Part shown: positions 1 to 10,216 of the stretch, one piece after another
How the letters are laid out: the number at the start of each line of letters is the position of its first letter
Position numbering within the stretch: position 1 is the stretch's first letter
From: a virus
Reading direction: 5' to 3' (one strand)
IMG/VR virus record: IMGVR_UViG_3300044628_000609
Coordinates: 1-24,746 of that record
Length of the DNA: 24,746 nt
Notes under the pieces: model-generated
What the model saw: the letters and a program-made list of their open reading frames with translations, nothing else
The model's database searches: none
Told to the model about the DNA's origin: nothing
Program-made: the position numbers and the translations under genes

Positions 1-61
1 TAACCTTGCCAATCCTCGCCCCGCCATGCCGCGCCTTGCCGAGCCATGCCCCGCCTTGCCG

Positions 62-106
62 CGAACAATACTTACTACGACTTATTCACCCGCAGTAAGC
101 AAAACC
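62..106 (-). repeat. 45-bp hairpin element, copy 1
   Basis: This copy is identical over all 45 bp to the one at 1172-1216. In the minus-strand RNA sense, CTTACTGCG pairs with CGTAGTAAG over 9 bp with one G-U wobble, around an 11-nt loop (stem arms at 91-99 and 71-79). It sits exactly in phase between two pentamer tracts. Confidence 0.88.
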
Positions 107-167
107 CTGCCTCGCCAAGCCCTGCCGTGCCTCGCCGCGCCCTGCCCTGCCCTGCCTTGCCTTGCCT

Positions 168-212
168 CGAACAATACTCACTACGACTTATTCACCCGCA
201 GTAAGCAAAACC
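168..212 (-). repeat. 45-bp hairpin element, copy 2
   Basis: Same element with one base change from copy 1 (T to C on the plus strand at position 179). In minus-strand RNA the change turns a U-A pair into a U-G wobble, so the stem survives. On the plus strand the same change would give a C-A mismatch. Confidence 0.87.
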
Positions 213-243
213 TTGCCTCGCCATGCCGCGCCATGCCCTGCCA

Positions 244-804
244 CTATGCCATTTCTATTTCAGTTCTGAACCCACCGTACAGCGGCCTATACGTTCCTAG
301 CCCAATCATGCCGCAGAAGTCAAAACATTGTTTCATTACTTCCCAAGTGAGATCTAAAGTCGATACAAACTCAACATCGAAAAACACTTCCCAAGGAGTA
401 TCTAAGCAAGGTCTTTCTTTCGGATTAGGAATAGCAGTTCCGCTTTTATTGAGTCTGGCTACGTGAAATTGCTTCGTGAAATGCTTTTCAAAATCATCTT
501 TTGCGATCTTCTTTCCGTCCTTTAAAATCAGAGGATAAGGTTGCACTATGTTCAGTGAGTTGTTGATACTCATTCCGATTGACTTAGCCTTCTTCCCGAA
601 AAACATCTTTGCGACAGACTTCGTGTTTTCTGCTGACAGTGCCGAGTAAATGTTAATCTGCGGCATCACAGCGAAACCTTCTTTCGACCAGTAGACTTTT
701 TCTATCAGTTCCAATTTCGAGTCGTTCGTCCCCCCGTACCGATCGAACAAGAGAGGTTTGGTACCGATGAATCTGACACTCGCCTTTTTCAAACTTGCTG
801 ACAT
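244..804 (-). CDS. Phage protein ending in a GLG-YRP-GGF motif (RAMP-like family suspected)
   Basis: 186 residues. The N-terminus reads VRFIGTKPLLF and the C-terminus GMIGLGTYRPLYGGF. This pairing of an early G..PLL strand with a late GxGxYRP..GGF strand is what I recall from a widespread phage family of unknown function, often near replication or recombination genes and suspected to adopt a RAMP-like fold. The assignment is from memory of the pattern, and no function is proven. The ATG at 804 has an AAAGG about 9 nt upstream and gives the expected family N-terminus, so I prefer it even though the gene then overlaps the end of the GIY-YIG gene by 152 nt. The TAG stop runs straight into the pentamer array. 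Confidence 0.75.
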   Translation of the reverse strand: MSASLKKASVRFIGTKPLLFDRYGGTNDSKLELIEKVYWSKEGFAVMPQINIYSALSAENTKSVAKMFFGKKAKSIGMSINNSLNIVQPYPLILKDGKKIAKDDFEKHFTKQFHVARLNKSGTAIPNPKERPCLDTPWEVFFDVEFVSTLDLTWEVMKQCFDFCGMIGLGTYRPLYGGFRTEIEMA

Positions 805-1063
805 TTTCTATAACCTTTTTCAATAGCGTGTCATCCAACCTAAACCACTCGTTTCCAGCTTCCGCTTGATACTCTCGGTATTGTTGATGAACCCACGACT
901 CCACAAACTCACTACTAAAATCCTTTAACGCAAAGGAAGCAGTGAGCGTTAACTTCCGACCGTTTCCAGTCTGCAATTGAGACATCCTTTTCATTACAGA
1001 CACATTCGTAATCCCGATTTTATAAAGCCCTGATCCATCAGAAATAATGTAAACCTGATTCAT
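653..1063 (-). CDS. GIY-YIG nuclease-type protein (T5orf172/Mug113-like)
   Basis: 136 residues. The first 94 form a compact GIY-YIG domain of the T5orf172 type: VYII at the N-terminus, GLYKIGIT as the YIG strand, an Arg in MKRMSQLQTGN, then ESWVHQQY and NEWFRL supplying the family's His and Glu region. Such proteins are small DNA nucleases or DNA-binding modules in phages. ATG at 1063 has AAGGA 9-10 nt upstream; a longer frame running up into the pentamer repeat is rejected. Beyond residue 94 the protein runs for about 42 residues through the next gene in another frame. That tail is rich in Arg and Asp and unlike the domain, so either the genes truly overlap or the original stop was lost. It lies between repeat arrays A and B. 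Confidence 0.82.
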   Translation of the reverse strand: MNQVYIISDGSGLYKIGITNVSVMKRMSQLQTGNGRKLTLTASFALKDFSSEFVESWVHQQYREYQAEAGNEWFRLDDTLLKKVIENVSKFEKGECQIHRYQTSLVRSVRGDERLEIGTDRKSLLVERRFRCDAAD

Positions 1064-1171
1064 GTCATATATCCTTGTAAAAACATTGCCTTGCCTCGCC
1101 TCGCCTGGCCCAGCCACGCCGTGCCGCGCCTGGCCGAGCCATGCCCCGCCTCGACACGCCGAGCCCTGCCG

Positions 1172-1216
1172 CGAACAATACTTACTACGACTTATTCACC
1201 CGCAGTAAGCAAAACC
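1172..1216 (-). repeat. 45-bp hairpin element, copy 3
   Basis: Identical in all 45 bp to the copy at 62-106, more than 1 kb away, although the pentamers on either side differ. Stem arms lie at 1181-1189 and 1201-1209. Confidence 0.88.
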
Positions 1217-1297
1217 CTGCCTTGCCACGCCACGCCACGCCGAGCCACGCCACGCCGAGCCACGCCAGGCCGAGCCATGCCCCGCCTCGCCATGCCG

Positions 1298-1340
1298 CGA
1301 ACAATACTTACTACGACTTATTCACCCGCAACGTGAAACC
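1298..1340 (-). repeat. 45-bp hairpin element, copy 4 (degraded)
   Basis: The first 33 bp match the other copies, but the second stem arm and the tail have changed and two bases are missing. Only about 5 of the 9 stem pairs can still form, so this copy looks decayed. Confidence 0.8.
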
Positions 1341-1404
1341 TCGCCGAACCCTGCCTTGCCGCGACACGCCATACCCCGCCGCGCCAAGCCGAACCTTGCC
1401 GCAA

Positions 1405-3731: not shown

Positions 3732-3974
3732 CTATTTTCGTTTCAAGATGTGGAGCTCTTTGATCGTTTTTCTCAGGATCGAATACTGATGTCGGTTGAA
3801 ACCGTTTGCGTCGTCTGTAGAAGCGTCCTCTGGCTCCCAACAATCGATTACGTAGTTGAGTCGAGTCTTTGCAGCTAGACGACCGAAGACGCGAAATGAG
3901 AGTGTTTGTGGGCCCTCAGCGTGGTCGAGGAAGACGACTTCGATCACGTCTCCAATGTTTGGTTTTGCGATCAT
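3732..3974 (-). CDS. Small phage protein, 80 residues
   Basis: Starts with an ATGA overlap on the stop of the metallophosphoesterase gene, so it is translationally coupled to it. IGDVIEVVFLDHAEG and LSFRVFGRLAAKTRLNYVIDCWEP suggest a small beta-barrel (SH3/OB-like) domain, followed by a basic helix ILRKTIKELHILKRK. No family recognised. It is the last gene of the late transcription unit before the promoter at 3655-3683. Confidence 0.7.
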   Translation of the reverse strand: MIAKPNIGDVIEVVFLDHAEGPQTLSFRVFGRLAAKTRLNYVIDCWEPEDASTDDANGFNRHQYSILRKTIKELHILKRK

Positions 3975-4978
3975 GATTTTCGCACCGTTCCATCTTTGGC
4001 TATTCGCATATTGGAAACATCGAACGAACCATCTTTAGCGACCTCCACAAATGCGCATCCGTGATTCCACTTGTTGGTTCTTCTGTAAGATGGAGTTAAT
4101 CCACACAAGCATCCGACCGACCAAACAAAAGTTTCGGCATGCATCAAATCACTGTCCGCATGGCTGCTTGTTTGATGTGAGTGACCTACCAAAACAGTGT
4201 GGTTAGTCCTGAGAAAGGCACCTCTAGCCGGATTGACTGGAGAGAAGAAAGACGAGCTCCCAAATTCGTGGCCATGCAGGATCGGTAGTTTTCCTGCCAT
4301 GATTATTCGCTGATCTGCAACGTACTCAATTCCAAACTTCGCAAGCTCGACAAGCTGCGGAAGTTGCACGTTGGCTAGATCATAAATCTCCGGTGCTCTA
4401 TTCCAAATGAAGTGATCCCATCGCTCTTCGTGGTTTCCGGCCTTCATGATGATTCGCTTTTTTGGAAACTCAGAACGAAGCCATTCTAGGCTTGCTTTGA
4501 TCACCTTTAACTCTTCGCTAAACCGTCGCTTGGATGGATCTCTCTGCCATCGTGATACCTGGTAGAAGTCGCACCAATCTCCATTGATTAAAATAACGTC
4601 TGGGTTTCTTTTTTTGAGATCAGCTACACCGGATTCTAAAGCCAATGGAACGTGATACGGTATGTGAGCATCCGAAAGAATACCAACGTCGATGTCGCTA
4701 CCTAAATCAAATACTTCCCATTCGTCTTCAAAGCTAGGAGGGCATTTCGGCTTCGTCCCAGCGTGACCTTTCGGCCTAGGTTGTGTCGCTTGCCGCTTGC
4801 TTCTCTTACCATGAGCACCGCGTATCATTCGAATAAAACCTCTCGCCTGCTCTGCACTAGAGAAGCATTCGGGGTGATCGGTGCGGAGTTTCTTTGCCAA
4901 TCCTAAATTGGAGTGGTCTGGATACTTCGCGCATAACTCTTCGGCCAGGATTCTAGCTGCTGTTTTCGGTGGGGTCAT
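3971..4978 (-). CDS. Metallophosphoesterase (calcineurin-like)
   Basis: 335 residues. All five metal-site blocks of the calcineurin-like superfamily are present in order: D103-x-H105 in SDAH, GD134-xx-D137, GN182-H183-E, H235-x-H237 and GH266-x-H268. It should hydrolyse a phosphomono- or diester with two bound metals; the substrate is not visible. About 60 residues of helical, basic sequence precede the catalytic domain (LAEELCAKYP to RGAHGKRSKR), which may be a DNA-binding or targeting part, then a Pro/Lys linker. AAGGA lies about 10 nt before the ATG at 4978. Location next to glycosyltransferases allows a role in sugar-phosphate metabolism, or it may process nucleic acid ends or cyclic nucleotides. 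Confidence 0.88.
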   Translation of the reverse strand: MTPPKTAARILAEELCAKYPDHSNLGLAKKLRTDHPECFSSAEQARGFIRMIRGAHGKRSKRQATQPRPKGHAGTKPKCPPSFEDEWEVFDLGSDIDVGILSDAHIPYHVPLALESGVADLKKRNPDVILINGDWCDFYQVSRWQRDPSKRRFSEELKVIKASLEWLRSEFPKKRIIMKAGNHEERWDHFIWNRAPEIYDLANVQLPQLVELAKFGIEYVADQRIIMAGKLPILHGHEFGSSSFFSPVNPARGAFLRTNHTVLVGHSHQTSSHADSDLMHAETFVWSVGCLCGLTPSYRRTNKWNHGCAFVEVAKDGSFDVSNMRIAKDGTVRKS

Positions 4979-4984
4979 TGTTGT

Positions 4985-6163
4985 TCATTCCTTTTGCGGG
5001 TTCCGGCTTTTTGCAAACTCACACAGCTCTATGATTGTTCCAACTCGAAGCGAACCGTGACCGTTAGAAATGTGCAGATACGGACTTGGTTCCGTTAGGT
5101 TTTTCATTGCCATCAATCGAGGATCTAAAGACCATTGCTGGCTGTCGATCATCAACACCGATGGATGGCTGCGACAGTGCAATAGCTCATCTAAAGCATT
5201 TTCCTCGCAGCAATACCGATTAGCCCAATGCTTCATTTTTAGAATCTCTTGGAGAATCTTTTTGTTGTTCTGATTGTTTTTCAACAACCAGTGACTTGTG
5301 TTTGGTCCGCCGTTGGGATGGAAAGCGTTGCGGACTCCCCCAAGAATCATTTCAAAACACGAATGGCAATGCTTATGTTGTGACTCAGTAAAATCAGTTA
5401 CAACGAAATCAGCATCGAACCAGCAGATCCAAGGTTTGTCGGTCAAGTCCATTGCGTCTAAGATTGCAAAAACTTTCATCCACGGACCAACATAGCCAGG
5501 AACAAAGTGATCTCCGTGCCTGTACTCATACCCCCAGTATTGGCAGTAGGCAGAATGATTTTCGATAACATGCTGCCTAGCTCCCCATTGTTGATGGCTG
5601 TCCGACAGTACTAGGATGTCTTCAGGTTTTGCAGTTTGCGATTTGATCGTCCACCAATCCTGGAAGTCAACGCTATGGTAAATTGCTTGCTGATTGTTTT
5701 TAGCCCACAAATCCACCGCATCTTTAACCCGCATCCATAACGGCCAACAATGCTCGTGTGAGTAATCGTGACCGGCAAGGATTCCATTCGCTGAAACTGC
5801 TGGCCACCACGCATGTAGCTCCTTCGACACATGCGTGAACGAGTGTTCATCATCCAAGTACACCCAATCGAAATACTGTGCGGGTGTTTGCTTTGCTTCA
5901 GATAAAGAATCATTCCGCACTACGTTGTAAGGTGGAGATGAAAACTTTTGAGATACACGATCGAATCGTTCTTCAGTGTGCTGGTAGAAATCTGTTTCGA
6001 TGTTTTGCCATCTATCTACCATGCGATACTCCGCCGCTGTTGGCCAAATACCTAAAGCATGTTCTGAGAAGTCACCTTCCAGAATACCAACCTCGACACC
6101 TCGTCCTTTAGGAGATAGCACGTTTGCGAGGTAAAGCGAGTCTCCGCGAAATTCTGCGTACAT
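4985..6163 (-). CDS. Methyltransferase-glycosyltransferase fusion
   Basis: 392 residues in two parts. Residues 1-175 look like a class I SAM methyltransferase of the Methyltransf_24 type: VEVGILEGDF (23-32) as motif I, then DWVYLDDEHSF (99-109) and GHDY (131-134). Residues 180-390 resemble GMA12/MNN10-type (GT34-like) galactosyltransferases: QHVIENHSAYCQYWGYEY, WMKVFAILDAM, the metal-binding W-F-D250-A-D252 and a late EENALDELL helix. The start overlaps the previous stop as TAATG. The protein probably adds and methylates a sugar on a virion or host glycan. The domain calls are from motifs; sugar and acceptor are unknown. Confidence 0.8.
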   Translation of the reverse strand: MYAEFRGDSLYLANVLSPKGRGVEVGILEGDFSEHALGIWPTAAEYRMVDRWQNIETDFYQHTEERFDRVSQKFSSPPYNVVRNDSLSEAKQTPAQYFDWVYLDDEHSFTHVSKELHAWWPAVSANGILAGHDYSHEHCWPLWMRVKDAVDLWAKNNQQAIYHSVDFQDWWTIKSQTAKPEDILVLSDSHQQWGARQHVIENHSAYCQYWGYEYRHGDHFVPGYVGPWMKVFAILDAMDLTDKPWICWFDADFVVTDFTESQHKHCHSCFEMILGGVRNAFHPNGGPNTSHWLLKNNQNNKKILQEILKMKHWANRYCCEENALDELLHCRSHPSVLMIDSQQWSLDPRLMAMKNLTEPSPYLHISNGHGSLRVGTIIELCEFAKSRNPQKE

Positions 6164-7137
6164 TACACTTTGTCTTTCAGGTATTCGGAAATGTCTTCGA
6201 TCTCAATGATATTCGGACAGGCTTTTGCTAAATCCTCTTTCTTTATTCGTGGATGGTAGCAGCAAGGAATCGCGTCCATCTTGCCTCTCACAATCTCCGA
6301 CCGCACCCAGTTGTACCACTGATAAATAGCAGGGACGGGATTAGCGAACTTGGAAGCATTCGACAAACCCATATCGTATCCGTGAGCATCGAGACTTCTG
6401 CCGCAATATAGATGTTGCCTTGCTGCCTTTAGCGGTCCAGATGGACCACGATAGTAAGCACAAACAGGGTTGTCGTAAAGTTTATGCTTCAACGCCAAAT
6501 CGACTGGATCAGTAAAGAACGTGATCGGTTCAACCCGGCCAGAGATGTTGGAGCTACAACCCATTTGGCCGACAATCCACTTGGGAGGACAGAACACTTT
6601 GCTTTCTGGATCTTCGTGCCACCGTCCCAAGTGGTGATCGATGTGCTCTGTGTTGTGGTACGGCAGATTACTAACGTGCTGGTAGATTGGCAGCATCCCA
6701 AGACTCGATACGGCAAAGCAATGAGTTCTATTTACGTTGTAGGGACGGTAAACGTTTTCCGATATTTTCAACGGTGGGTGTGATCTCTCATGGACTAATT
6801 GACCACCTAGATAAATCTGTTGCCAATCGTCTGGCAATTCGTCGTAGAATGTTTTCAGTTGATCCATAAAGTTGGGACCAAATTTTGCATCGTCCTCAAA
6901 TACAAGATAGGAACTAATGCCGTTATTCAAACAGTGCTCTAGAATCGATTGATGACTTCGCATACAACCCCATGCACCGTTTCCAGCACACCATATATCT
7001 GGAGGCTGGCAAGTATCACCGTGAACGGCTTTCCAGACTTCGATCTCTGGGAAAAATAGTTTCGCTTGATTGAGAAACGTCGTTAGTCGATCGTGTCTAA
7101 AGTCTAAGGAAATAACGAATACCTTTTCAAACATCAT
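6163..7137 (-). CDS. Family 25-type glycosyltransferase
   Basis: 324 residues counting from ATG at 7137 (a second ATG follows at 7134). The N-terminus MFEKVFVISLDFRHDR and the segment GAWGCMRSHQSILEHC...YLVFEDDA are hallmarks of glycosyltransferase family 25, which includes the LPS galactosyltransferases. E81-D82-D83 is the likely metal and sugar-nucleotide site. A long C-terminal half with PYHNTEHIDHHLGRW replaces the usual short end. AAAGGGG precedes the start, and the gene overlaps the previous one by about 10 nt. It likely modifies virion proteins or host surface glycans together with the next gene. Confidence 0.86.
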   Translation of the reverse strand: MMFEKVFVISLDFRHDRLTTFLNQAKLFFPEIEVWKAVHGDTCQPPDIWCAGNGAWGCMRSHQSILEHCLNNGISSYLVFEDDAKFGPNFMDQLKTFYDELPDDWQQIYLGGQLVHERSHPPLKISENVYRPYNVNRTHCFAVSSLGMLPIYQHVSNLPYHNTEHIDHHLGRWHEDPESKVFCPPKWIVGQMGCSSNISGRVEPITFFTDPVDLALKHKLYDNPVCAYYRGPSGPLKAARQHLYCGRSLDAHGYDMGLSNASKFANPVPAIYQWYNWVRSEIVRGKMDAIPCCYHPRIKKEDLAKACPNIIEIEDISEYLKDKV

Positions 7138-7630
7138 TGCCCCTTTGTGATGACCAAAAAGCAAAAGCGTCGTCTAGACTCATGATCTTCTGACCTAGCT
7201 TTGCGTTGACTGCGTTCTTTAGTTTCCACTTCCAATTGAAAGATAATGGAAACGCTGGTGGATTGTTTTTCTTCCAATCAAGGTAAAACCTTTTGCATTT
7301 CCCACCGCATCGGTAGTTTGGGATTCGAGACTCCCAGTATTCAAGTTGTGATTGGCTTTCGATCGTCAGAAACAACTCACGCCACAAAGCTGGACCTAGT
7401 TCCGTGACTTGTGTTTTCGTTTTTGTTCCAGGTATCAACAACTCTAGTATTTTCTGCCTGTCTTTTTCGTTCGCATGATGAAAAGCCAGACCATACACGA
7501 CTTTGTTTTCTTGCTGTGGCTTGCTTTCTTTATTGCACTGTTCACACGCTGCGAATGGTACTGTTATCTCTTTACCAGTTAAGCGATTAACTAACTCGCA
7601 CTGATTCTTTTGAAGGTGTTTACAGATCAT
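7127..7630 (-). CDS. Cys-containing protein of unknown function
   Basis: 167 residues. The ATG at 7630 overlaps the stop of the poly-serine gene as ATGA; an earlier in-frame Met at 7642 lies inside that gene. Paired cysteines (ICKHL, CEQC, CGGKC) suggest a bound metal. The C-terminal WKWKLKNAVNAKLGQKI...DDAFAFW resembles an HNxVN-type helix seen in some phage and planctomycete proteins placed beside glycosyltransferases, though the His is Lys here. Function not known. Tight coupling on both sides ties it to the poly-serine protein and to glycosylation. Confidence 0.7.
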   Translation of the reverse strand: MICKHLQKNQCELVNRLTGKEITVPFAACEQCNKESKPQQENKVVYGLAFHHANEKDRQKILELLIPGTKTKTQVTELGPALWRELFLTIESQSQLEYWESRIPNYRCGGKCKRFYLDWKKNNPPAFPLSFNWKWKLKNAVNAKLGQKIMSLDDAFAFWSSQRGNDV

Positions 7631-8034
7631 GCTGGAACGCAATCCTCAGAAACTAAAGTCCATTCAGTTCCGTTCCAAAGATATGTACACGTGCACTCTT
7701 CGATAGGTATATTGTCTTCGTCAGTTATGATACAGACTTGGACGACAACTTCTCCAGGGAAAGATCCTGGAATTCCTGGGGTGTTTTCTAAACAGCATCC
7801 TCCAAATACAGGAGCACTTGAACTACTGGAAGAGCTACTGGAAGAGCTACTGGAACTGCTCGACGAACTGCTCGACGAAGAGCTAGACGAACTCGATGAC
7901 GAACTCGATGACGAACTTGACGATGACGAACTGCTAGACGAACTAGAGCTAAGTGACGAACTAGACGAAGAACTACTCGATGGAGAACTGCTGGAACTAT
8001 CACAGCAACACGCTATAGACGCAGGAAGAGGCAC
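7627..8034 (-). CDS. Poly-serine virion or appendage protein
   Basis: 135 residues, starting with GTG at 8034 behind GGAGG, and just after the previous TAA. Residues 13-73 are 59 serines interrupted by one Pro and one Leu. The run begins after CCC and ends before APVFGGCC; four more Cys follow in a 62-residue C-terminal domain (VVVQVCIITDEDN, then CTCTYLWNGTEWTL). All six Ser codons are mixed along the run, so the amino acid rather than a DNA repeat is being kept. A flexible, possibly O-glycosylated stalk is a reasonable reading given the downstream glycosyltransferases. The acidic plus-strand frame over it is a shadow. Confidence 0.82.
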   Translation of the reverse strand: MPLPASIACCCDSSSSSPSSSSSSSSSLSSSSSSSSSSSSSSSSSSSSSSSSSSSSSSSSSSSSSSSSSSSSSAPVFGGCCLENTPGIPGSFPGEVVVQVCIITDEDNIPIEECTCTYLWNGTEWTLVSEDCVPA

Positions 8035-8877
8035 TTAGCACGTTCCTCCCTCAGTCCACGTTCCTCCGCTTTGTAAATCACAAGCTGCCTCTGTCATGAT
8101 TGCACAGACGCTACCAGATTCAGGATCGTAGTAGTTGCATGCACCAAGCGGCTCAGACGGTGGCGAGTCTGGAGGACATGAGTATTCTTGTTGTAGTGGT
8201 ATCCAGCGTCCGCCATCTTGCTCGACACGAACGACTGCACCAAGTGCTCCGTAGTCCCATTTGTACAGATTGACGACCCATTGACTACCTGTCGGCAAAA
8301 CTCCGTCTAGTGCTTTTGTCGGTGTCACCCAAAAGCCACCTACAACACCATCGTAGCCGAGTGTTAAAGTCCCTAGCCAGTTGCGACGGCTTGCCATTCC
8401 TCCGCCGCCAAACGACATGGAAAGATAGCAACCGTTCGTTACAACATCCGTTGGCCCAAGGTAGATCAATCCAATACCAGACGAAACATTGAACGAGCCG
8501 TTTGTCCAACCGATGGAGTTTCCTGCGCTGAAGCTACTTCCGTCTGTCGTAGCAGTAAAAACAGGACCATCTTGTGCGGTTCCGTACTCGCCGTTTGCAA
8601 CTGCAAAAGGTCCGTTGAACAACGGAACAAAAGCACCGCTGGCACTGACTGGACGACCGACAGTAACGTAGGTAAAGACACCTGATTCAAACGTGCCAGT
8701 CGGTTGCAGGATCGCATACGGTGGAATCGTAAAGCCTGAATCGTTTCGGAAAAATATCGGTGTCGGCGGAGTTACCGTGTCAGTCGATTGTGAATCTGGC
8801 AAGCGTTCCCACCAGCGGACGAGCTCAATTAGCTTGTCTGCGAACGCTGGCTTTAGAACGCTGTAAGTTTCGGACAT
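8035..8877 (-). CDS. Tail-associated protein with Cys-rich C-terminal module
   Basis: 280 residues. A short helix (FADKLIELVRWWERL) is followed by a long beta-rich Gly/Ser/Thr region typical of distal tail or fibre proteins. From about residue 230 there is a separate module with six Cys (SCPPD, GACNYYDPE, SVCAIM, AACDLQSGGTW, GGTC). I recall repeats of this type from secreted and surface proteins of Planctomycetes. It lies between the tail proteins and the poly-serine gene. Function not known; attachment or appendage is likely. The C-terminal Cys may pair with those of the next protein (inference). Confidence 0.72.
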   Translation of the reverse strand: MSETYSVLKPAFADKLIELVRWWERLPDSQSTDTVTPPTPIFFRNDSGFTIPPYAILQPTGTFESGVFTYVTVGRPVSASGAFVPLFNGPFAVANGEYGTAQDGPVFTATTDGSSFSAGNSIGWTNGSFNVSSGIGLIYLGPTDVVTNGCYLSMSFGGGGMASRRNWLGTLTLGYDGVVGGFWVTPTKALDGVLPTGSQWVVNLYKWDYGALGAVVRVEQDGGRWIPLQQEYSCPPDSPPSEPLGACNYYDPESGSVCAIMTEAACDLQSGGTWTEGGTC

Positions 8878-8879
8878 GA

Positions 8880-9293
8880 TTAGATTGCAACGCCTACGGC
8901 ACTGAATAGCGTGATGATCGTGCTAGTCGTGTTTGCGGTGCCAATCAAACAAGGAAAGTCACCTGTGGTCAAATCTTCGACTGGACAGATTGCTCCCTTC
9001 GTTGCACTTACGGTGTACGTTTTACCACGCACTAAAGTCGCACCAAGGTTAAGCGTTAAGCCTGCACCTTCTGCAAACACAGAGTACCCGTTTGTAGAGG
9101 CTGGAGTCAGGAAGATACCAACAGCACCAGCTACGACAGCAGATACGTTTGCGTCCGCTTGATAGTACTTTCCATCAGAGGTTAGCAAGTAGCCGGGTTG
9201 CCCTTGCGTGACTGCTTCACCGACCTGTACCACTCTGACCCGTCCAGGCCCTGCCATTGCGACGTTCGCGGGGGTTTGACTTAAATTTGCCAT
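8880..9293 (-). CDS. Beta-rich decoration-like tail protein (DUF2190-like)
   Basis: 137 residues. The start at 9293 makes a TAATG overlap with the previous gene; an earlier Met lies inside that gene and is rejected. The sequence GATLVRGKTYTVSATKGAICPVEDL and the even spread of Gly/Ala/Thr/Val strands resemble small capsid or tail decoration domains such as DUF2190. The window carries another protein of this style at 15712-16089, in the head module. Its position after the tape measure points to the tail. Assignment by general pattern only. Confidence 0.6.
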   Translation of the reverse strand: MANLSQTPANVAMAGPGRVRVVQVGEAVTQGQPGYLLTSDGKYYQADANVSAVVAGAVGIFLTPASTNGYSVFAEGAGLTLNLGATLVRGKTYTVSATKGAICPVEDLTTGDFPCLIGTANTTSTIITLFSAVGVAI

Positions 9294-10216
9294 TAGATTA
9301 ATCCTAGTGCGTTGTAAGGTAATGAACCGTATAGTTTCGTTTCGATCCAATACGGTGTTGGTGTTGTTCCTGCCGGTGTTTTAATTTGTCGTCCGCTAGC
9401 GTTGAGATACTGCGGAGTAGTCGTCACGTGATTGTTATCGTCTGTGACTTCCACAAGCTTTCCAGCGCTGTCCCGTTGCTTTAGGCCCATGCTGACGTAT
9501 CGAGCGTACCAAGCTTTATCCGGTGTCGTGTTGTACGGAAATCTAAATTGAAAGACACCCGTAACGGTCCAGTAGCCAAAGGATGGCTCGTTTCCACCTG
9601 CGGATTGCGTGATAACGTTCTGTGCTGACAACTTCATCAGTTTACAGGTGCCTGGTGGCCAACCTAGGAACGTGTCGGAGTTTACCGATCTCCTGTAGAC
9701 TGCTTGCGTGTAGGTGTTGAATACCAAGAAGTTGCGCGTTACCGTCAGCAACTGATCGGAGAACAAAGCTTTAACACCTTTTACGGGTTGCCCTGCGGTG
9801 TTGGTGATCGGATCTCCGTCGAAGTCAACGTCGATGTCTTCTGAGGTTTCCACATCGTCCCATGTGATGCGTGGAGGTGCGTAGAGTGGAGACGTAGGAT
9901 TCGATGGCTCGCTGCCTCCGCTCGTTTGTGCGATGCCTCCAATCTCTCCACGGTATTCAATTGTGGCCAGCCAGAATATCGGAGACACTCGCTGGAGTTG
10001 CGCACCCTCTGCGACAACGAACGGGAATCCTGGGTAGGGTTGAGCCACTCCAGGCAATCCGGCCTGCGTGTAAACGTCAAGCTCGCCCGCGTCTGCGGAA
10101 GTCGTGATCTGGTACGTCTCGGAGAAAGTGACTTCAAGCTTGCGGAAGTTCTCGGATGTCGTTGCGTTGGAAGACTGGTTCGACCACATCTTGATAGCTG
10201 GATTGACTGTTGGCAT
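9293..10216 (-). CDS. Distal tail protein of unknown family
   Basis: 307 residues. The gene begins directly after the tape measure stop (TAAATG), with GGAGGT about 10 nt upstream. It is beta-rich with aromatic strands (FGYWTVTGVFQFRFPYN, then KAWYARYVSMGLKQRD), no signal peptide, and ends WIETKLYGSLPYNALGLI. In siphophages this slot holds the distal tail protein or baseplate hub, so a tail-tip role is likely. I do not recognise a named family. Confidence 0.65.
   Translation of the reverse strand: MPTVNPAIKMWSNQSSNATTSENFRKLEVTFSETYQITTSADAGELDVYTQAGLPGVAQPYPGFPFVVAEGAQLQRVSPIFWLATIEYRGEIGGIAQTSGGSEPSNPTSPLYAPPRITWDDVETSEDIDVDFDGDPITNTAGQPVKGVKALFSDQLLTVTRNFLVFNTYTQAVYRRSVNSDTFLGWPPGTCKLMKLSAQNVITQSAGGNEPSFGYWTVTGVFQFRFPYNTTPDKAWYARYVSMGLKQRDSAGKLVEVTDDNNHVTTTPQYLNASGRQIKTPAGTTPTPYWIETKLYGSLPYNALGLI

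What the first reader, a model, noticed from the sequence alone, without database searches (positions are those of the whole stretch)
1..1403. Two composite arrays of NNGCC pentamers and a conserved 45-bp hairpin
Direct count: pentamer tracts of 11, 12 and 6 units (array A) and 17, 16 and 12 units (array B), all in phase, with a 45-bp hairpin element between tracts. Copies 1 and 3 of the element are identical although they lie about 1.1 kb apart, while the pentamers around them keep only GCC and vary at the first two bases. A period of 5 bp is half a helical turn, so GCC cores would alternate on two faces of the DNA. That fits a filament-forming or centromere-like protein array, or an RNA with regularly spaced GGC. 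I know of no named element with this form in phages.
Basis: partly seen in the sequence, partly recalled or inferred. Interest (0 to 1): 0.78.

Follow-up and report, generated by a model that had tools for sequence, protein, structure and literature searches.

The report
Phage guide-RNA arrays with Cas7-like protein
The five-letter repeats are very probably guide-RNA genes of a phage-borne VIPR system, a recently described RNA-guided DNA-binding relative of CRISPR, here with a predicted nuclease gene that overlaps the gene for the Cas7-like protein.

Summary
The repeats are real. On the minus strand they read (GGC-NN)n: 6 tracts of 6-17 units, four of them followed 3' by a copy of a 43-45-nt element, of which three copies form a stable hairpin. 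The 845 bp between the arrays identifies the element. Gene 244-804(-) encodes a 186-aa protein of phrog_4652, the family that includes the protein I identify, by position, as the Vipr of phage SUSP1. Its model (pLDDT 93) matches CRISPR Cas7/Csm3 (Z 12.8). This is a VIPR locus as described in PMC13142463: GGY/NN vrRNA guides with 3' tails beside a single-RRM RAMP gene. Of 121 IMG/VR loci found by the pentamer alone, 87 have vipr within 1.5 kb, 85 on the GGC strand; 0 of 44 control loci do. New here: a GIY-YIG (T5orf172/MUG113) gene lies directly upstream in 48 of 56 loci of this Vipr clade, always in the same frame, running 140-311 nt into vipr. A near-identical phage keeps one guide, identical to A1 as far as the window shows it, but lacks vipr. 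Expression was not testable; no natural target was found. The published supplement was out of reach, so the variant may already be one of its types.

The parts
1..61 (-). vrRNA guide tract A1, at least 11 units (AA GG AT TC AA GC AT GG GA TT AA), cut by the contig end
   Evidence: the near-identical phage L005 carries the same tract with identical NN, followed by an AGTAAAG-AAGA-CTTTACT hairpin
62..106 (-). vrRNA tail 1 (3' tail of A2), hairpin
   Evidence: -16.3 kcal/mol, z -4.8
107..167 (-). vrRNA guide tract A2, 12 units
168..212 (-). vrRNA tail 2 (3' tail of A3), hairpin; one base differs from tail 1 and keeps the pair (U-A to U-G)
   Evidence: -16.4 kcal/mol, z -4.5
213..242 (-). short vrRNA guide tract A3, 6 units, starts at the vipr stop codon
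244..804 (-). vipr gene: 186-aa single-RRM RAMP protein (phrog_4652, Cas7/Csm3 fold, C-terminal G-loop GLGTYRPLYGGF)
   Evidence: phrog_4652 E 1.2e-10; leave-clade-out HMM E 1.5e-11; AF2 pLDDT 93.4; Csm3 Z 12.8
653..1063 (-). GIY-YIG (T5orf172/MUG113) gene, candidate vap; its last about 150 nt overlap vipr in another frame
   Evidence: MUG113 E 1.2e-14, T5orf172 E 2.2e-10; Slx1-like GIY-YIG fold Z 7.6; 48 of 56 clade loci
653..804 (-). two-frame overlap of the GIY-YIG gene and vipr
   Evidence: same relative frame in 48/48 loci, overlap 140-311 nt
1082..1171 (-). vrRNA guide tract B1, 17 units; no hairpin tail, runs into the leader of the GIY-YIG gene
1172..1216 (-). vrRNA tail 3 (3' tail of B2), hairpin, identical to tail 1
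   Evidence: -16.3 kcal/mol
1217..1296 (-). vrRNA guide tract B2, 16 units
1298..1340 (-). altered tail 4 (3' tail of B3), 5' arm of the stem replaced, no stable hairpin
   Evidence: z 0.2
1341..1402 (-). vrRNA guide tract B3, 12 units

Best explanation
Positions 1-1403 are a VIPR locus of a tailed phage. The minus strand encodes several guide RNAs (vrRNAs). Each is a tract of GGY-NN pentamers, and most carry a 3' tail, here usually a 12-bp hairpin. The gene 244-804 encodes the Vipr protein, a small Cas7-like RAMP. By analogy with SUSP1 VIPR, Vipr subunits line up along the vrRNA, the GGY triplets are held by the protein, and the exposed NN pairs read double-stranded DNA with one skipped base per step, so that the complex sits on and silences a gene of a competing phage or satellite. 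The GIY-YIG gene directly upstream probably supplies an accessory function (a vap), possibly nicking or cutting at the bound site. Shown here: repeats, tail structure, protein family and fold, gene arrangement, strand and co-occurrence across many phages. Inferred: expression, RNP formation, the decoding rule, the targets, and any nuclease activity.
For: Repeat format: 70 of 73 cores are GGY and NN is variable. Tails: three hairpins with z about -4.7. Protein: phrog_4652 E 1.2e-10; the SUSP1 gene I take to be vipr hits the same family at 1.4e-96 and its locus has the layout the paper gives; leave-clade-out HMM E 1.5e-11; AF2 model pLDDT 93.4, all 50 best PDB entries shown are CRISPR RAMP/effector subunits, Z 12.8, 161 of 186 residues. 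Linkage: of 121 loci found by the pentamer alone, 87 have a Vipr gene within 1.5 kb and in 85 the GGC strand is the coding strand; 0 of 44 control loci. Converse: of 56 loci (55 found by Vipr protein alone, plus the window), 54 have tracts, none on the opposite strand. GIY-YIG. Phage context: terminase, portal, Clp protease. Published system: PMC13142463.
Against: No expression data. Core searches of IMG/VR for tracts A1, B1, B3, A2, B2 and of GTDB genomes for A2, under the 1-nt skip rule, gave no match that extends beyond chance. 34 of the 121 array loci have no recognised Vipr in the stretch held (some are contig ends, others may be other Vipr types or coincidences). Two of six tracts are atypical (A3 only 6 units, B1 without a hairpin tail), and tail 4 lacks its stem. 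The catalytic competence of the GIY-YIG protein is untested.
Confidence: 0.92

Rival explanations
1. The pentamer arrays are a DNA-level binding platform (iteron, centromere or packaging site) for a filament- or ring-forming protein; the neighbouring RAMP gene is incidental.
For: Tandem short repeats in phage intergenic regions are often protein-binding sites (general knowledge).
Against: The NN positions are hypervariable while tails differ between phages; each hairpin shifts the repeat register, so there is no helical phasing across tracts; GGC is on the vipr coding strand in 85 of 87 loci; tails fold as RNA, and in L203 two tails keep the stem with different base pairs.
Confidence: 0.04
2. 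The GIY-YIG gene is a selfish homing endonuclease that has inserted into or beside a VIPR locus, and is not part of the system.
For: GIY-YIG genes are common phage homing endonucleases (general knowledge); 8 of 56 clade loci lack one; L005 lacks the whole cassette.
Against: Found at the same place, in the same relative frame, in 48 of 56 loci of diverse phages; its frame stays open a mean 238 nt into vipr against 82 in synonymous-codon shuffles and a median of 66 nt in other Vipr clades, which a recent insertion would not give. Loci are not independent of each other.
Confidence: 0.2
3. The locus is a decaying remnant: vrRNAs are no longer expressed and the arrays persist by repeat duplication.
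For: Tail 4 is damaged, A3 is short, B2 has an internal 15-bp repeat; L005 keeps guides without vipr.
Against: The vipr frame is intact with all seven invariant family residues and a confident RAMP model; A1 is identical in L005 over the part the window holds, and in L172 a Vipr 67% identical to the window's keeps four long tracts.
Confidence: 0.12

Closest known systems
VIPR (Viral Interference Programmable Repeat) systems, PMC13142463; reference systems Escherichia phage SUSP1 and Pseudomonas fulva prophage (type II)
   Same: GGY/NN tandem repeats of about 9-16 units with 3' tail; small single-RRM RAMP of phrog_4652; guides on both sides of the genes; carried by a phage
   Different: Vipr is a far relative (about 20% identity to most rows outside its clade) in a distinct clade; the accessory gene is GIY-YIG, upstream and overlapping vipr, whereas SUSP1 has a phrog_5926 protein downstream; the tail is a plain hairpin of another sequence
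CRISPR-Cas Cas7/Csm3 RAMP subunits (types III and VII)
   Same: Fold, G-loop position, expected filament on a guide RNA (Z 12.8)
   Different: No cas operon, no CRISPR repeat-spacer array; guide information is spread over pentamers
T5orf172/MUG113 GIY-YIG proteins, Slx1 fold (also PADLOC candidate PDC-S57, E 4.6e-8)
   Same: Domain and conserved V-Y, K-I-G, R, E, H, E-W-F residues
   Different: Here coupled to vipr with a long out-of-frame overlap

Membership tests
VIPR system | Vipr protein: RAMP with RRM core, G-loop and thumb, without second RRM | tested here: met
   phrog_4652 shared with the SUSP1 protein; Cas7/Csm3 fold over 161 of 186 residues; invariant G165, G168, R173, G177 and nearly invariant G170 in the C-terminal loop region. 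Thumb not inspected separately.
VIPR system | vrRNA repeat tracts of 9-16 YNNGG units with conserved GGY and variable NN | tested here: met
   Tracts of 17, 16, 12, 12, at least 11 and 6 units; 70 of 73 cores GGY
VIPR system | Invariable structured 3' tail after the repeat tract | tested here: met
   Hairpin tails after B2, A3, A2 (z about -4.7); tail after B3 altered, none after B1; A1 followed by another hairpin in L005
VIPR system | vipr flanked by intergenic vrRNA regions | tested here: met
   Arrays at 1-242 and 1082-1402 on either side of the gene pair
VIPR system | Accessory (vap) gene in the locus | tested here: inconclusive
   GIY-YIG gene at the expected place and conserved; whether it is one of the published vap1-6 could not be checked (supplement not available)
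VIPR system | Small RNAs of about 100 nt expressed and co-purifying with Vipr | not testable with these tools
   needs RNA data
VIPR system | Targets recognised with the 1-nt skip rule, natural targets in competing elements | tested here: inconclusive
   No extended target found; NN use in 256 tracts is codon-like (purine at first base 68%, TA at 0.55 of expectation), which is weak support
CRISPR-Cas array | Identical repeats of 20-50 bp separated by unique spacers, with cas genes | tested here: not met
   Pentamer units, no cas operon recognised in the part of the window examined; only the RAMP fold is shared
Hammerhead-interspersed VIPR array | Hammerhead ribozymes between tracts | tested here: not met
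   No Rfam match in 1-2500 at E up to 1, nor ribozymes in 15 related loci

The most novel reading that the evidence does not exclude
A clade of phage-borne VIPR systems carries a GIY-YIG nuclease-like accessory encoded in a two-frame overlap with vipr, so that guide-directed binding may be coupled to cutting inside phage-versus-phage conflict; the published main text reports predicted nucleases only in VIPR types enriched in host defence islands. Near-identical phages gain and lose the vipr-GIY cassette by recombination between guide arrays, leaving guides that may use another element's Vipr.
Probability: 0.4. Interest if true: 0.75.

Novelty: new variant of a known kind. Interest (0 to 1): 0.62.

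Why it matters
VIPR is the proposed ancestor of CRISPR and only a few systems have been studied. This locus belongs to a clade that is nearly absent from sequenced cultured phages (at most 1 weak hit among 50,697 records for three queries) but common in environmental phages (55 contigs). A phage VIPR paired with a GIY-YIG protein would bear on how a silencing complex became a cutting one. The near-identical phage L005, which keeps the A1 guide (identical over the part seen in the window) but lacks vipr, gives a natural comparison for what the cassette does.

Tried and rejected
Simple tandem repeat, host dispersed repeat or assembly accident: rejected by the vipr linkage. Protein-coding explanation (pentamers read as AWHGMARQG-like peptides): the frames are open by composition, and the tracts lie between genes. 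TRAP-type (NAG-NN) RNA ring binding and parS/iteron readings were considered and dropped once the RAMP gene was recognised. TIGR-Tas considered from memory only; no Nop-like gene was seen. BLAST of the region against phages gave only 44-bp matches in mycobacteriophages, one of which (Quico) proved to carry a Vipr homologue. Host search: the terminase query found no relative in GTDB genomes, so the host is unknown. Target search: no convincing hit; the best A2 match (L227, Chloroflexi MAG, 21 of 24) is what chance gives after 20 fixed positions. A whole-set scan of 235 tracts against 2 Mb showed no difference between skip rules. The idea of a programmed frameshift fusing GIY-YIG to Vipr is not supported beyond the overlap itself: vipr has its own start and, in most loci, a stop just upstream in its frame. 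SUSP1 Vipr and the window protein share only 44 aligned residues by BLASTP (E 3e-4); the profile and fold carry the homology.

Full report
WHAT IS IN THE SEQUENCE. The window is a 24,746-base virus record with terminase, lambda-type portal and Clp-type protease genes on the minus strand. Region 1-1403 holds two groups of pentamer tracts. Read on the minus strand, the direction of the genes, they are (GGC-NN)n: B3 12 units, B2 16, B1 17, then two genes, then A3 6, A2 12, A1 at least 11 before the contig ends. Cores are 67 GGC, 3 GGT, 2 GTC and 1 GGA. The longest perfect run, 16 units, compares with at most 4 in 2,000 shuffles. Copies 1 and 3 of the 45-bp element are identical; copies 1-3 fold as a hairpin (z -4.5 to -4.8, 0 of 200 shuffles), copy 4 has lost the 5' arm.

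THE GENES BETWEEN THE ARRAYS. Window 244-804(-) encodes 186 aa with no Pfam match but a match to phrog_4652 (E 1.2e-10). With an alignment of 54 sequences its AlphaFold2 model has mean pLDDT 93.4. The 50 best PDB entries by Foldseek and by VIA-align are all CRISPR effector subunits, mostly Csm3/Cas7 RAMPs (best Z 12.8, 161 residues, rmsd 3.7). Seven residues are invariant across the family, among them G165, G168 and R173 of the C-terminal glycine-rich loop region. Window 653-1063(-) is a T5orf172/MUG113 protein (E 2.2e-10 and 1.2e-14); its model, of modest quality (pLDDT 69), matches Slx1 and other GIY-YIG nucleases (Z up to 7.6), and the residues V6-Y7, K17-I18-G19, R28, E57, H61 and E74-W75-F76 are invariant in five relatives.

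LINKAGE. Of 121 loci examined, 87 have a phrog_4652-type gene within 1.5 kb (median gap 70 bp), and in 85 of 87 the GGC strand is its coding strand. None of 44 loci fetched for other reasons has one. In the reverse direction, 55 loci were found by the protein alone; with the window that makes 56, of which 54 have tracts, all on the gene strand; the other two start at or near a contig end. Array and gene therefore belong together. Some of these loci are near-duplicates, so the counts are not fully independent.

WHAT IT IS. The full-text search led to PMC13142463 (bioRxiv 2026), which describes VIPR: a small ancestral RAMP (Vipr), vrRNAs of 9-16 YNNGG repeats with an invariable structured 3' tail, and a vap gene, mostly in phages; the complex binds double-stranded DNA by the NN dinucleotides with one skipped base and represses competing elements. 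The SUSP1 locus in our records has the layout that paper gives. I take its gene 28474-29061 to be vipr because of that layout (one intergenic stretch upstream, one further gene and a second intergenic stretch downstream); it hits phrog_4652 at 1.4e-96. A profile built without the window's whole clade still finds the window protein at 1.5e-11. Membership is therefore tested on sequence family, fold, repeat format, tail and arrangement; expression and target rule are not testable or inconclusive here.

WHAT IS DIFFERENT. In the tree the window Vipr falls in a 12-row clade with full support (100/100) on a long branch, far from SUSP1. Within it, the window and L041, L020, L076, L109 carry the GIY-YIG gene immediately upstream of vipr. 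In the enlarged set 48 of 56 loci have it, all 48 in the same relative frame, with the GIY-YIG frame running 140-311 nt into vipr. The frame stays open for a mean of 238 nt, against 82 in synonymous-codon shuffles and a median of 66 nt in other Vipr clades. Synonymous codons are also more conserved in the overlap (0.55 against 0.38), although clade members without GIY-YIG show a weaker difference in the same direction (0.42 against 0.32). The overlap therefore looks maintained, but the proof is indirect. PMC13142463 states that predicted nucleases occur only in types III and V, which are enriched in host defence islands; a phage-borne clade with a GIY-YIG gene would not fit that sentence, but the supplement was not available and the GIY-YIG gene may be one of its vap families.

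NATURAL COMPARISON. L005 comes from a phage that is 99.6% identical to the window over 4.7 kb (window 4950-9656). At the VIPR site it has a single short array: one different tract, the same hairpin, and A1 identical to the window's as far as the window shows it. No Vipr was found anywhere in its 43.6-kb contig, while the same search found it in two control contigs. This fits deletion of the cassette by recombination between arrays, or its later arrival in the window lineage; the contig may be incomplete. L005 also shows what follows A1: a perfect AGTAAAG-AAGA-CTTTACT hairpin, which supports the 3'-tail reading.

TARGETS. The NN strings of the window guides were searched with the 1-nt skip rule using cores of 8-10 units in IMG/VR (A1, B1, B3, A2, B2) and GTDB genomes (A2). 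Matches were few and did not extend beyond the searched core more than chance. The host is unknown, so the competing element may simply not be sampled. Across 256 tracts the NN pairs have codon-like use (68% purine at the first base, TA at 0.55 of expectation), in line with, but not proof of, the published statement that skipped bases fall on wobble positions.

VERDICT. A VIPR locus: probability about 0.92. Acting as an RNA-guided DNA-binding complex against competing elements: about 0.75, by analogy. GIY-YIG gene as a functional part of the system: about 0.7. The core of the finding is a known kind of system as of 2026; the overlapping GIY-YIG gene makes it a variant worth a specialist's attention.

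Noticed in passing
L005:5998-6160; window 1-1403: Near-identical phage with guides but no vipr or GIY-YIG gene: an orphan vrRNA array, or the scar of cassette loss.
   Followed up: partly
L093:1787-2557, L048:10981-11763, L068:10867-11664, L042:1113-1943; window 3971-4978: Calcineurin-like phosphoesterases, or proteins that look like them by eye, lie beside vipr in the sister subclade without GIY-YIG (Pfam match only for L093); the window has one 3 kb away. Possible alternative accessory gene.
   Followed up: partly
L088:1651-2139 (-), L075, L102, L077: A phrog_15946-type protein (tested for L088 only) with a conserved R-x-x-LLRSI...K/RY pattern lies between arrays next to vipr in other clades: a candidate vap.
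   Followed up: no
L009, L021, L064, L094, L120: Small winged-helix-looking proteins (L/DxVTYEEI...NSRHYIYRANKEL) sit between arrays in several loci; no Pfam or PHROG match for the one tested (L064).
   Followed up: no
L203:4600-4780: Two consecutive tails keep the same stem with different base pairs (CTGCA/TGCAG against CGGCGC/GCGCCG), which speaks for RNA structure of the tails.
   Followed up: partly
Mycobacterium phage Quico (L126) and Gordonia/Mycobacterium relatives: Many Mycobacterium and Gordonia phages carry Vipr homologues annotated as hypothetical proteins; Quico also has a pentamer tract that matched the window.
   Followed up: no
window 653-1063: The GIY-YIG protein also matches PADLOC candidate defence family PDC-S57 (E 4.6e-8).
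   Followed up: no
window 7627-8034: Polyserine-rich low-complexity ORF opposite an acidic repeat frame, beside glycosyltransferase-like genes at 4985-7164.
   Followed up: no
L191:7187-8497: Six tRNA genes near a vipr locus without GIY-YIG.
   Followed up: no
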